Part shown: piece by piece, positions 37,301 to 46,300 of the stretch | Layout: each line of letters opens with the position of its first letter | Position numbering within the stretch: position 1 is the stretch's first letter | From: Pogonophryne albipinna | Lineage: Eukaryota; Chordata; Actinopteri; Perciformes; Artedidraconidae | Assembly (NCBI GenBank): GCA_028583405.1 | Contig: JAPTMU010000032.1 | Span: 645,001-709,000, forward strand | Direction: 5' to 3' | DNA length: 64,000 nt | Made by a program: the position numbers and the translations under genes | The notes under the pieces: model-generated | What the model saw: only the letters and a program-made list of their open reading frames with translations | What the model was told of the DNA's origin: nothing | The model's database searches: none

Positions 37301-40300
37301 ACCGTTACACCCCTAAGGACCACGCTTCGTGTGGGGTGAGTACCAAACGCTGTCTCCTGGTACTTTTCTGAGTAACTCATTAAAAAAGTTATGTGCACCC
37401 CTGAATATAATACATTAACTGTGCTTTGCCTGAACCTCATCATGACACTAGAGAGGACGGCAGGATTGTAATTTCCTGTGTTCAGTGAATGCAATTATGT
37501 AAAATATTATTTCCAAGGCACACCTTCATATGATCATTATAGTTATACAAAAAAGAGAATAAATGTAAAAACAGGTATGAAATACCATATGACAGTAAAA
37601 CAAGAATACAGTTTAAAAGGGAGTGATTTGTAAAATATCCATAAAGAAAAAGTAAATCTGTTTCCAGTTCTGTTTCATATGGGTGTTGAGAGATGTTTCC
37701 ATAGATCTCTTCATTTTGCTCTCAAAGTGCACCAGATTGATGCTTTTAACTTCAATATTAAAAAAAAAAAAAATCTTCCCTGGGGAGCATGTCCCCGGAC
37801 CCCCCTAGAGGACGATAGGTCCACCCCCCACTTGTATAAATAGCACTTTACCCTTGCTTACACCTATATGCCGTGAGCTGATTATCGAGCCTTCATTGTA
37901 ACAGTCGCGGGTGTACTGTGTATGTGTGTGTGTGGGGAGTGTTGCATTAGAAAGTTCCACTGTAGCGCCCGGTACATTAATGGGAAACCCTACATGTTTG
38001 AGCACCCTCAATTAAACGTCAAGCTACCCCACAGCACTCCCAAATGAAAATCTCTGGCACCGCTATTGTGGGCTAAGCCCCTAATGTTTCCAAGGCACGG
38101 CCCCTCCACTGACACTTTACGCAGACTCTATATGCATTACATTAATGCACACAATGTTTAAATATTGCTTACTGCACATATTTTATATTCTATAATTTAT
38201 TGCATTCTATTTCGATGTAAATTACTGCTTATTTTATTGCTATCTTACTATATTTAAATTTGTATTACTGTGTTCGTAATATAGTTCGCTATCTGTGTAC
38301 GTAGAGTAGCCGTGACTAGGCCGTGCGAAGCTACATCGGTGCTTTCGTCAAGCGGAAGTAGGCGTGGCTAAATCTAAACTTGGTTGGAAAAACGATAGAA
38401 ACCGCCCGGCCTCCTGGCCATGATTTAACATGTCAACCAGGATATTTCACTGACCCTCATCAGGTATATAAGCAGCCTAACCCACCTCCTATCTGAAATT
38501 GTTCAGCCTAACCACAATATAACCTTAACCATAATTTTCATGCACTAAATGTTTAAAAATATGACTGACAGTAAACATAATCAGAGAGTGTGCAGGATCT
38601 TCCAGCATCAACAGGTTGTTGGGCTGTTTGAACCTGTGTGACTGACCTCCAGTAGAACATCAGAGGCGTCATGGATGAGCATGACCAACGTTCCTATCCG
38701 GATGTAGTTGGCACACCAGGAGAATGATAGCAGTACCAGCGTAGCCAGGTGGTGGATGATCTGCTCCTTAAAGTCCTACAGGAGGAAGAGAAACAGTCAA
38801 CCTACCAAAAACCCAGTAGTCTCCACCAGACTAATACACAGCTTTCCCATTAGCACCATTTTGAGGATGGATGTTATTTTCATCTTACTACATTTAAAAA
38901 ATGTCTTGGGGTGCATTCACATCTAATAGTCCGCTCTCTGGTGCGCACCAGACGACAGTTTGTTACATTGTTACATTTTCCAGAAGGTTCGGTTTGCGTT
39001 CACACGGGCAAAACTCAAACGGAGTATAAACTTTAAACACAAGTCATGTGCACGGAAATGCTGTTCAACCATTGGTCAGACATTAAGGGGGTAAAAACGC
39101 GAATCCCGGCAATTTCTACCGGAGCCTCCGCCATGGAGCATCGGCACTTTGGGCAGGTTATTCTCATGCTGCTGTTAATCTGGAGATCAACAGACACTAG
39201 CGGCCCGCGCATATGATTATATAATCAGACAACGTCCGTTAAAAAACATTATAACATAATGAGAGACGTTCTGCAGTAAGGAGGGGTGTTTCACCGACGA
39301 CAGGTGGCTCTGACTTTTATGTAGCTGACGGAGAAAAAAACACTGTTCAACACTTCATTCTGCTTCACTCTTTAACTAAACAACCGCGGATGTCTTGAAA
39401 GACTCTTTCGCTAAAGATTTTGAAGACACCCGCGTTCTTGTGACACGTAAATACTACGCTTCCTATGTTTTGGTGCAGACTGCGTTCACACCAGCAATGA
39501 ACTGCTCCAGAGTTCGCAAACAAGCGCTCCGAGACCACCTATTTTAGCGGACCAGAGTCCGGTTGTTTAGTTCACTTCAGAGGTCTCGGACTGCGTTCAC
39601 ACCGACCCAAATGAACCGCACCAAGCGGCTAAACGCACCAGGGTTAGATTTAACCGGACTATACAAGGCAGGTGTGAACGCACCCTTAGAGTCTAACCAG
39701 TCTTGGGACTAACTCTTATTAAAAATACGTTTTTATTGCTAAATCACATATTTTTTTGTGGCCAAGTAGCAAATATTTCAAACCCTAGGGCTCTTTTGGG
39801 ACACATTGTTGTGTCGTTTTCCGATGAACATGATGGTGTGAAGTCACAGGTCTACTTCTCTTAGGCTTATTTTAGGGAGGATAATGATTTAAAATAATTA
39901 GCATGCTTTTTTGAGGAGAGTTACATTATGGGGTGAAAAAGCCTTTAATAGAACACTTTTTTGAACTTTTTTTACTAAATGTAGTACAGACGAGTTTGTG
40001 AATATACTGTGTTTTATTCCTTTTATTGGGAATAAAAGCTGAATATTTAAACATCAATAATTCAGGAGATTTAATTAAGGGTAAATGTTAGCTTGTAAAA
40101 ACCACAACTCACCTTTCTCTTAACATCAAAGGCAACGCGTAAGAGGAGTGAGCCGTAGAAGCTCATCTCCAGGATGTAATACCAGTACTGAGACTGCAGC
40201 ATGGACTGAACACACACAGAAACAGAGGCAGAGCATGTAACATGAAGCCAGAGTGAATCTCAGTCACACAGTACACACTAATGTCTCCGCTCTTTGTCCT

Positions 40301-43300: not shown

Positions 43301-46300
43301 TTAGCTGAAAATGCAGAAAAAGCTGAATGTCTTTTTAGCTGAATGGTAGCTGCTTTTAGCTAAAGAAAATGCAGAAAAAGCTTAATATTTCAAAGAAAAG
43401 GTTTAAAAAAAAAAGGTATAAACAACAACATGTATAGCCTTGAAGTCCTGAAATAGCTGAATAATGTAATAGTTGAATGGTTTCTGTAGCTGAAAATAGG
43501 CTGAAGGAGTTAAATATCAGATGTAAGTAGTAGTGAATGAATTTGTATTAAGATGAGAAAAGAAAGTAAAAAGGCTTGGGAAAGCAGAAGAATATTTGAA
43601 CTGCAAACTTTTGAACTAACTTGATGGTGATCTGTCGCCATGCCAACAGCATTTGATGACATCCCATAATACGCTTAGATGTGTTGATGGCTGCATCGTT
43701 ACCAAACCTGTGACGTTTTGGGCCATTTCGAGCATTTTCACTGAAGTTATGAGAAAACCGTGTTTCGTGGTGAGCATTGTGTTGCCATGGCAATGGCATT
43801 TGAAGAAATCTCAAAACTGTCCCCTAGATGTCTTCACGGCTGGACTGTTAGCACACATGTGAAGTTTGAGCACTTTTTGAACATTTTCATAGGAGTTAGA
43901 CATTACATTAGGAGGTTACATTACTCTCTCTCTTCTCTTGATCGCCCTCTCTCTCTTCTCTCTCCTCTTGATCGCCCTCTCTCTCTTCTCTTGATCATTC
44001 ATCATCATCGGTGTGTGTCTGTGTGAGAGAGAGAGAGTGTGTGTGTGTGTCTTTGTGTGAGAGAGAGAGCGTGTGTGTGTCTCTGTGTGAGAGAGAGATG
44101 TGTCTGTGTGTGTGTGTGTGTGTGTGTGTGTGTGTGTGTGTGTGTGTGTGTGTGTGTGTGTGTGTGTGTGTGTGTGTGTGTGTGTGTGTGTGTGTGTGTG
44201 TGTGTGTGTGTGTGTGTGTGTGTGTGTGTGTGTGTGTGTGTGTGTGTGTCCTCAAATAGCCATTGTCCATACATCTCTCCCCTTTGCGTCCTACAGCTGG
44301 AGGTTTGTCTTCTACATATCGGCGTTCATTGGAGGACTGATAGCTCTGTACGATGTGAGTACCTGAAATAAAGCATGACTCCATCTCAGCCAGAAGCATG
44401 CTTTTACAGTGAATAGAAACTTTAGATAGCTGAGGTTGAATGTTAAAGTCACTAGCAGCTGTTTGGGTGTGGCTCTGTGTATTCCATAAAATTCTATATC
44501 TGTAGCCGTACTAACACAAAAAAATTCTCTCCCCATGGTTTTGCAGAAAGAATGGTTTTATGACACCCGGGAAGTTTGGGAAGGTTTCCCAAAGCAGGTT
44601 TGTATGATTTTTATACGCCATAGTCATCATATTAAAGTTAGGGTGGGCAACTTATTTTAGATTAGTCTTTGTTATATTTGTTGCATCCCGAAACCGATCA
44701 ATAAAACAAATGCTACTACCAAAGAATTGAAACATAAAGGTAATAATACATATCAATGTTTGACATGCTTATTGTCTTTGTGTTACAAGGAAGCAACACC
44801 TATGACTTGTCTTTATTAAAGCTGTACTAATGGAAGGAATATACATGAGGCTTTACAGGTTATTATTTAAAAGGCACCTTCATTACAAATACAATGATGC
44901 AGCCCGGCCTTACACACTGTGATTGGAGAATATATGATCCCCTAGCTCACATTTCACTCTGTTCTTAGCTTTTAAAATGGAGGTGAGTGAACAATAGTCT
45001 CCTCTAAAGTTTCCTCCTGCCAGATAAAGGAGTTAGGACAAAGAGCGGAGACATTAGTGTGTACTGTGTGACTGAGATTCACTCTGGCTTCATGTTACAT
45101 GCTCTGCCTCTGTTTCTGTGTGTGTTCAGTCCATGCTGCAGTCTCAGTACTGGTATTACATCCTGGAGATGAGCTTCTACGGCTCACTCCTCTTACGCGT
45201 TGCCTTTGATGTTAAGCGAAAGGTGAGTTGTGGTTTTTACAAGCTAACATTTACACTTAATTAAATCTCCTGAATTATTGATGTTTAAATATTCAGCTTT
45301 TATTCCCAATAAAAGGAATAAAACACAGTATATTCACAAACTCGTCTGTACTACATTTAGTAAAAAAGTTCAAAAAAGTGTTCTATTAAAGGCTTTTTCA
45401 CCCCATAATGTAACTCTCCTCAAAAAAGCATGCTAATTATTTTAAATCATTATCCTCCCTAAAATAAGCCTAAGAGAAGTAGACCTGTGACTTCACACCA
45501 TCATGTTCATCGGAAAACGACATAACAATGTGTCCCAAAAGAGCCCTAGGGTTTGAAATATTTGCTACTTGGCCACAAAAAAATATGTGATTTAGCAATA
45601 AAAACGTATTTTTAATAAGAGTTAGTCCCAAGACTGGTTAGACTCTAAGGGTGCGTTCACACCTGCCTTGTATAGTCCGGTTGAATCTAACCCTGGTGCG
45701 TTTAGCCGCTTGGTGCGGTTCATTTGGGTCGGTGTGAACGCAGTCCGAGACCTCTGAAGTGAACTAAACAACCGGACTCTGGTCCGCTAAAATAGGTGGT
45801 CTCGGAGCGCTTGCTTGCGAACTCTGGAGCAGTTCATTGCTGGTGTGAACGCAGTCCGCACCAAAACATAGGAAGCTAGTATTTACGTGTCACAAGAACG
45901 CGGGTGTCTTCAAAATCTTTAGCGAGAGAGAGAGTGTGTGTGTGTGTGTGTGTGTGTGTGTGTGTGTGTGTGTGTGTGTGTGTGTGTGTGTGTGTGTGTG
46001 TGTGTGTGTGTGTGTGTGTGTGTGTGTGTGTGTGTGTGTGTGTGTGTGTGTGTGTGTGTGTGTGTGTGTGTGTGTGTGTGTGTGTGTGTGTGTGTGTGTG
46101 TGTGTGTGTGTGTGTGTGTGTGTGTGTGTTAATTGTTACAGCTCAAATGCATTGCAATAACTTCCATGTTAAAAAAACACTTTAAAAAGCTGAATATTTT
46201 AAAAAGTATAACATATTTAGAAAAAGTTTAAAGTGTCCCATCATGTGTTGAAAAGGCAGAGTAGTTTGATATTTGAATGGTTCCTGCAGCTGGAATTAGG

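What the first reader, a model, noticed from the sequence alone, without database searches (positions are those of the whole stretch)
39408..45925. Inverted duplication of cers3 exons 4-6 within the gene's own intron 2
Arms 39408-41086 and 44250-45925 (about 1.68 kb each) are near-identical inverted copies. They include three coding exons with all six splice sites intact and only two synonymous differences in 202 coding nt. Breakpoints on both sides fall in TG/CA or GA repeats. The spacer holds exon 3, so recombination between the arms would invert exon 3 and inactivate the gene. The arms could also form a long intronic hairpin in pre-mRNA, bringing exons 4-6 into double-stranded RNA with the antisense copy (ADAR or back-splicing substrate). 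Alternatively it is an assembly error at the microsatellites.
Basis: partly seen in the sequence, partly recalled or inferred. Interest (0 to 1): 0.82.

Follow-up and report, generated by a model that had tools for sequence, protein, structure and literature searches.

The report
Backward exon copy inside cers3 intron
In the genome sequence of what is probably an Antarctic fish, a 1.7-kb block holding three exons of a ceramide synthase gene appears a second time, reversed, in an earlier intron of the same gene; it is probably a copying accident between DNA repeats, though an assembly error cannot be ruled out without raw reads.

Summary
Window 39408-41085 and 44250-45925 are inverted copies (1,678 and 1,676 bp) with 9 substitutions and 2 one-base indels. 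The first is the native exon 4-6 block of an intact 10-exon, 398-residue cers3-like gene; the second lies antisense in intron 2 with six splice sites and the peptide unchanged. Protein matches point to a notothenioid fish. One correction: the inner end lies in (AC)n/(GT)n, but the outer source end is not in a microsatellite; only its target side is, with 4 bp (CTCT) of microhomology beyond one mismatch. The best fit is a two-switch replicative template switch (MMBIR/FoSTeS-like; 0.57). The main rival is an assembly or library artefact (0.36): arm divergence (0.54%) equals heterozygosity printed for one notothenioid (0.536%), and both coding differences are synonymous. No reads or relative genome could be examined; the own-genome search did not complete. 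Hairpin and exon-3 inversion follow from the structure but are unobserved here. A human MANBA intragenic inverted duplication did cause multi-exon skipping (passage in a review), so this is a new member of a known kind.

The parts
39408..41085 (-). Source arm: native cers3 exons 4-6 with their introns, and part of a TE-like sequence at its low end
   Evidence: order and frame agree with the fish protein
44250..45925 (+). Inverted copy of the source arm, antisense to cers3, in intron 2
   Evidence: 9 substitutions and 2 one-base indels
40981..41038 (-). cers3 exon 4, native (58 nt)
40738..40788 (-). cers3 exon 5, native (51 nt)
40113..40205 (-). cers3 exon 6, native (93 nt)
44297..44354 (+). 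Copy of exon 4, identical, splice sites intact
44547..44597 (+). Copy of exon 5, one synonymous difference, splice sites intact
45130..45222 (+). Copy of exon 6, one synonymous difference, splice sites intact
41086..41394 (.). (AC)154.5 microsatellite in intron 3 at the inner end of the source arm, 8 bp from exon 3
44011..44249 (.). GT/GA compound tract then (GT)n: target side of the inner junction
45926..46129 (.). GAGAGAGA(GT)98 tract: target side of the outer junction
41403..41521 (-). cers3 exon 3 (119 nt, homeobox-like part) in the spacer between the arms
49037..49154 (-). cers3 exon 2 (118 nt); intron 2 runs from here to exon 3
54069..54241 (-). cers3 exon 1 (coding part, 173 nt)
38647..38775 (-). 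cers3 exon 7 (129 nt)
33283..33389 (-). cers3 exon 8 (107 nt)
   Evidence: tblastn; ends and frame checked
28640..28793 (-). cers3 exon 9 (154 nt)
   Evidence: tblastn; ends and frame checked
25179..25373 (-). cers3 exon 10 with stop codon (195 nt)
   Evidence: tblastn; ends and frame checked

Best explanation
A real, fairly recent inverted insertional duplication made by a two-step replicative template switch (MMBIR/FoSTeS type). A nascent strand in the GT/GA tract of intron 2 paired with the complementary (AC)n tract of intron 3. It copied about 1.68 kb backward through exons 4-6, re-paired with the GA/CT part of the intron-2 tract at a 4-bp CTCT microhomology (one mismatch beside it), and went on; the opposite direction of travel fits equally well. 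Shown: the arms, their orientation, both junction sequences and the intact native gene. Inferred: the replication mechanism, that intron 2 was one unbroken tract before, and the effect. The likeliest effect is none to moderate, because the antisense block can leave with intron 2. Partial skipping of exons 4-6 through a pre-mRNA hairpin is possible, as is a standing risk of inversion of exon 3.
For: Long complementary (AC)n/(GT)n tracts meet at the inner junction. At the outer junction source and target share CTCT next to one mismatch; CTCT in that register lies beside 457 of 56,901 window positions tested, the 39.3-46.2 kb stretch left out. The outer source side is not a microsatellite, so repeat-overlap misassembly alone does not place it there. 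Both flanks lie in the same intron in correct order, with related repeat units on either side (43438-43516 and 46238-46316, 78%). The window holds no N. The differences include one indel outside a homopolymer. A pair of one long-homology and one little-homology junction is described for an F8-locus inverted duplication (PMC10766186, passages).
Against: Arm divergence, 9/1,676 = 0.54%, equals the heterozygosity of one notothenioid and exceeds that of another. Both coding differences are synonymous, chance about 0.04 for unconstrained change; two alleles would show that, a decaying copy need not. The outer microhomology is only 4 bp. A similar human rearrangement (MANBA) broke the gene's splicing, which makes a fixed harmless copy a little less likely. 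No reads, no relative and no second assembly were examined.
Confidence: 0.57

Rival explanations
1. Assembly or library artefact: sequence of the second haplotype, or a chimeric read made at the microsatellites, was built into intron 2 in reverse orientation. The locus really has one copy.
For: 0.54% divergence equals the heterozygosity of Trematomus loennbergii (0.536%); Harpagifer antarcticus is lower, 0.37% by k-mer and 0.15% by alignment (passages). Both coding differences are synonymous, P about 0.04. Three of the five longest pure AC/GT/GA/CT tracts in the window flank the arms. False exon gains are documented in vertebrate assemblies (PMC9516828, passages), and AC repeats self-prime during PCR (PMC6868369, passages).
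Against: The outer source breakpoint is in non-repeat sequence with only 4 bp of shared bases beside one mismatch. Two junctions return to the same intron. There is no N gap, whereas the NPNT example in PMC9516828 was separated by an assembly gap; the words 'inverted' and 'inversion' do not occur in that main text.
Confidence: 0.36
2. Real inverted duplication formed by end-joining or by erosion of a larger palindrome or inverted triplication (ODIRA-like), not by a simple two-switch event.
For: ODIRA authors argue that inverted duplications can be eroded from triplications with one repeat-mediated and one microhomology junction (PMC10766186, passages).
Against: Needs larger intermediates and extra steps; no third copy among the self-BLAST hits of 80 columns or more that were printed for the window.
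Confidence: 0.05
3. The copy was moved by a transposable element or is a retrocopy.
For: The outer source end lies in TE-like sequence with inverted GGTGCGTTCACACC-type motifs.
Against: Introns are retained, so it is not a retrocopy. I see no TE terminus at the copy ends; microsatellite tracts, not a target-site duplication, flank it.
Confidence: 0.02

Closest known systems
MANBA partial intragenic inverted duplication (beta-mannosidosis; Blomqvist et al. 2019)
   Same: Part of a gene duplicated in reverse within the same gene; in the patient the mRNA skipped multiple contiguous exons
   Different: A homozygous disease allele in one patient; here an intact-looking gene in a fish reference with no RNA data. 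Seen only as a passage and reference in a review (PMC9405548); the case report itself is not held
DMD inverted duplication of Dp427c exon 1 within intron 1 of Dp427m
   Same: An exon copied in reverse into an intron of the same gene
   Different: A single exon of another transcript, called likely pathogenic; splicing effect not tested on muscle RNA (PMC10949565, passages)
Template-switch inverted duplications (FoSTeS/MMBIR; four-point template-switch mutations)
   Same: A reverse-complement copy nearby, two switch points, microhomology at a junction
   Different: Short-range events in great apes had median copied length 12 and maximum 128 (PMC7954356, passages); here 1.68 kb with coding exons, and one switch in a dinucleotide tract
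F8 intron 1 (int1h) and intron 22 inversions of haemophilia A
   Same: Inverted repeats with one member inside a gene, able to invert the stretch between them and break the gene
   Different: There the second repeat lies outside the gene (recalled) and recurrent inversion is known in patients; here both repeats are in one gene, 3.16 kb apart, and no inversion has been seen (search listing only)
hpRNA loci (inverted duplications giving endo-siRNA)
   Same: An inverted duplication can make long double-stranded RNA against a gene
   Different: Those are separate loci acting in trans (recalled); this is an antisense arm in an intron of the same pre-mRNA, with no small-RNA evidence (search listing only)
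False exon gain / heterotype false duplication in assemblies
   Same: Allele-like divergence, exons of one gene doubled
   Different: Inverted, gap-free, with a source breakpoint outside repeats (PMC9516828, passages)

Membership tests
Replicative template-switch (MMBIR/FoSTeS) duplication | Reverse-complement copy close to its source | tested here: met
Replicative template-switch (MMBIR/FoSTeS) duplication | Homology or microhomology at each switch point | tested here: met
   (AC)n/(GT)n inside; CTCT beside one mismatch outside; the ancestral target sequence is inferred, not seen
Replicative template-switch (MMBIR/FoSTeS) duplication | Ancestral empty site in relatives | not tested
   no fish genome could be searched; the genome search unanswered 12 times
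False (heterotype) duplication | Arm divergence in the range of heterozygosity | tested here: met
   0.54% against 0.536% and 0.15-0.37% in two notothenioids; species of the window not known
False (heterotype) duplication | Half read depth / haploid k-mers over both copies | not testable with these tools
   no reads available
False (heterotype) duplication | Assembly gap at the junction | tested here: not met
   no N in the 64-kb window; gap-free false joins are still possible
Ceramide synthase (CerS) gene | TLC domain and homeobox-like domain | tested here: met
   PF03798 1.4e-29, PF00046 3.8e-06; CerS6 structure 4.7e-61
Ceramide synthase (CerS) gene | Full-length open coding sequence with fish orthologues | tested here: met
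   ten exons by tblastn; 398 residues and a stop, GT-AG at each of nine introns; 99% and 98% to Dissostichus eleginoides and Champsocephalus gunnari over exons 1-7
Inverted repeat that causes recurrent gene inversion (int1h-like) | Observed inversion alleles | not testable with these tools
   single assembly only
Intragenic inverted duplication with exon skipping (MANBA-like) | mRNA lacking the exons concerned | not testable with these tools
   no RNA data; only a fold of naked RNA

The most novel reading that the evidence does not exclude
The antisense exon 4-6 block is a working cis element. In the nascent cers3 transcript it folds onto exons 4-6 and switches the gene between full splicing and an in-frame exon 3-6 skip (321 nt), or marks the exons for A-to-I editing. 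At the DNA level the arms let exon 3 flip back and forth in the population.
Probability: 0.07. Interest if true: 0.72.

Novelty: new member of a known kind. Interest (0 to 1): 0.33.

Why it matters
If real, it is a kilobase-scale template switch caught young, with one switch at a dinucleotide repeat, in a fish group where AC is the most abundant repeat motif in at least one species (T. loennbergii); it would help test whether such repeats seed inverted duplications. It also places three exons in a near-perfect 1.68-kb hairpin, a natural test of how splicing copes with long intramolecular double-stranded RNA; in a human MANBA case an intragenic inverted duplication went with exon skipping. If an artefact, it is a clear example of a gap-free inverted false exon gain.

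Tried and rejected
Retrocopy or TE capture: rejected because introns are kept and no TE terminus is seen at the copy ends. Chance: rejected by length and identity. Gene conversion between arms: the 610-bp spacing without differences is not significant (P = 0.079 in 20,000 draws). Polarising the 11 differences with other TE copies: the breakpoint stretch 39396-39425 found only itself in the window at up to 6 errors. A second local inverted pair (18147-19098 / 21332-22303) was looked at as a possible sign of a genome-wide habit; its class stayed unresolved. Copy number in the assembly or in relatives could not be tested.

Print: one search listed 15 papers for six phrases such as 'intragenic inverted duplication'. 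I looked up the phrase in three of them afterwards and had passages from a fourth; the other 11 I saw as titles and starts of abstracts only. Two give precedents in human genes (MANBA, DMD). (hairpin and exon skipping) was seen as a listing only. I make no claim that nothing similar is in print.

The MANBA and DMD precedents were missed in the draft. For these reasons I moved the template-switch reading from 0.60 to 0.57, artefact from 0.33 to 0.36, and the novel case from 0.05 to 0.07.
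Full report
What is there. The repeat finder, global alignment and self-BLAST all give one long inverted repeat. The clean arms are 39408-41085 (1,678 bp) and 44250-45925 (1,676 bp), with 9 substitutions and 2 one-base indels; perfect runs reach 609 bp. Beyond the clean arms the match runs on into (AC)n/(GT)n.

The gene. On the minus strand ten coding exons make a complete ceramide synthase gene. Exons 1-7 were placed by splice sites, exons 8-10 by tblastn with a Dissostichus eleginoides protein. 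Joined, they give 398 residues and a stop with GT-AG at each of nine introns. The exon 1-7 product has a TLC domain and a homeobox-like domain and matches the solved CerS6. Its best relatives are notothenioid fishes: D. eleginoides 99%, Champsocephalus gunnari 98%, Eleginops maclovinus 96%, D. mawsoni 95% (top four of 120 listed out of 1,154). Sources call the orthologues ceramide synthase 2, 3, 3a or 3b. A metalloprotease propeptide ORF at 6078-6599 would fit an ADAMTS17 neighbour, as at human CERS3 (synteny recalled). The species is not known; notothenioid, probably Antarctic, is an inference from the protein matches.

Source and copy. Exons 4-6 at 39408-41085 lie in gene order and orientation, so this arm is the source. 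The arm in intron 2 is antisense. Its three exons keep all six splice sites and the same 67-residue peptide; differences are GTA/GTT and AGA/CGA. With 20% of single changes synonymous, the chance of two synonymous hits is 0.042. That is weak evidence that both versions evolved under coding constraint, as alleles do. A young true copy of a different haplotype would look the same.

Junctions. The inner end of the source is a pure (AC)154.5 tract in intron 3, ending 8 bp from exon 3. The copy begins in (GT)n that follows a GT/GA compound tract. The outer end of the source, 39408, is in ordinary sequence (GACTCTTTCGC) inside a TE-like stretch; in the copy, viewed in source orientation, it reads CTCTCTCTCGC and runs into CT and AC repeats. 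Beyond the last copied base there is one mismatch and then a shared CTCT, which in that register lies beside 457 of 56,901 positions tested. So one join used long repeat homology and the other about four bases. Pure AC/GT/GA/CT tracts of 40 bp or more cover about 1.4 kb of the 64-kb window (9 tracts, the event's own included), and three of the five longest flank the arms. I infer that the tie to such tracts is not chance; it fits both replication slippage and repeat-driven misassembly.

Real or artefact. For real: the outer source end is not a microsatellite; the copy leaves and returns to one intron; related repeat units lie on both flanks; there is no N. For artefact: 0.54% divergence equals the heterozygosity of Trematomus loennbergii (0.536%), though it is above that of Harpagifer antarcticus (0.37% by k-mer, 0.15% by alignment) (PMC8614269 and PMC13131655, passages); false exon gains are documented (PMC9516828, passages); AC repeats self-prime in PCR (PMC6868369, passages). 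I put 0.57 on a real event in the template-switch form, 0.36 on artefact, and the rest on other routes. The one test that I could have run, a search of the window's own assembly, did not complete in 12 tries.

Consequences. In a minimum-energy fold of the 6,901-nt pre-mRNA stretch, 1,670 of 1,678 source-arm bases pair with the copy arm, among them 58 of 58, 50 of 51 and 92 of 93 bases of exons 4, 5 and 6 (MFE -4324.6 kcal/mol). With the copy arm shuffled once, the MFE is -2239.2; 1,031 source-arm bases are still paired, and 36, 32 and 62 bases of these exons. Exon 3 has 82 of 119 bases paired in both folds. This is thermodynamics of a naked RNA and says nothing about kinetics, proteins or co-transcriptional splicing; intron 2 with the antisense arm can be removed once exon 3 is made. 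Skipping exon 3 or exons 4-6 together shifts the frame; skipping exon 5 or exon 6 alone, or exons 3-6 together (321 nt), keeps it. Crossing over between the arms would invert 41086-44249 with exon 3, and loss of exon 3 is a frameshift. None of this has been observed here. A review passage reports that a homozygous partial intragenic inverted duplication of human MANBA resulted in skipping of multiple contiguous exons (PMC9405548, passage; the case report is not held). That makes a splicing effect more credible than the fold alone does, and it also means that a real copy may not be harmless.

Known kinds. Template switching makes reverse-complement copies (PMC8794818, abstract). Great-ape short-range events have median copied length 12 and maximum 128 (PMC7954356, passages), so this one would belong with kilobase-scale events. 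A junction pair of one long-homology and one little-homology join is described at the F8 locus (PMC10766186, passages). Reverse copies of exons inside their own gene are described in human patients for MANBA and DMD. The nearest precedent for gene-breaking inverted repeats is F8 int1h (listing only). I therefore call it a new member of a known kind, with moderate-to-low interest until reads confirm it.

Noticed in passing
18147-19098 and 21332-22303: A second local inverted pair, 24 substitutions and 24 gap columns over 974 columns, about 2.2 kb apart, each arm with a 3-copy 40-bp repeat; no target-site duplication seen by eye. Could be a long-TIR element or another inverted duplication.
   Followed up: partly
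7648-8310 and 10186-10814: Inverted pair at 88% identity, about 1.9 kb apart; perhaps dispersed TE copies (not tested).
   Followed up: no
42691-43149 and 48113-48587: Direct pair within the same cers3 intron 2, 90.5% overall but with 201 nt 100% identical.
   Followed up: no
11268-16588: Ty3/gypsy-type element with gag, RT, RNase H and integrase ORFs between direct repeats of 431 columns, 96.8% alike.
   Followed up: partly
30702-32975: 39-bp minisatellite, 58 copies, in the cers3 intron between exons 8 and 9, open in several frames.
   Followed up: no
52574-52969: 33-bp minisatellite (12 copies) inside a long ORF (52308-53258) near a reverse-transcriptase remnant at 50357-50893 (PF00078 just under its cut-off).
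   Followed up: no
49155-49324: (AC)82 tract 5 bp from cers3 exon 2, at its 3' splice site; the D. mawsoni protein P0004 differs at this exon start, perhaps a misannotation.
   Followed up: no
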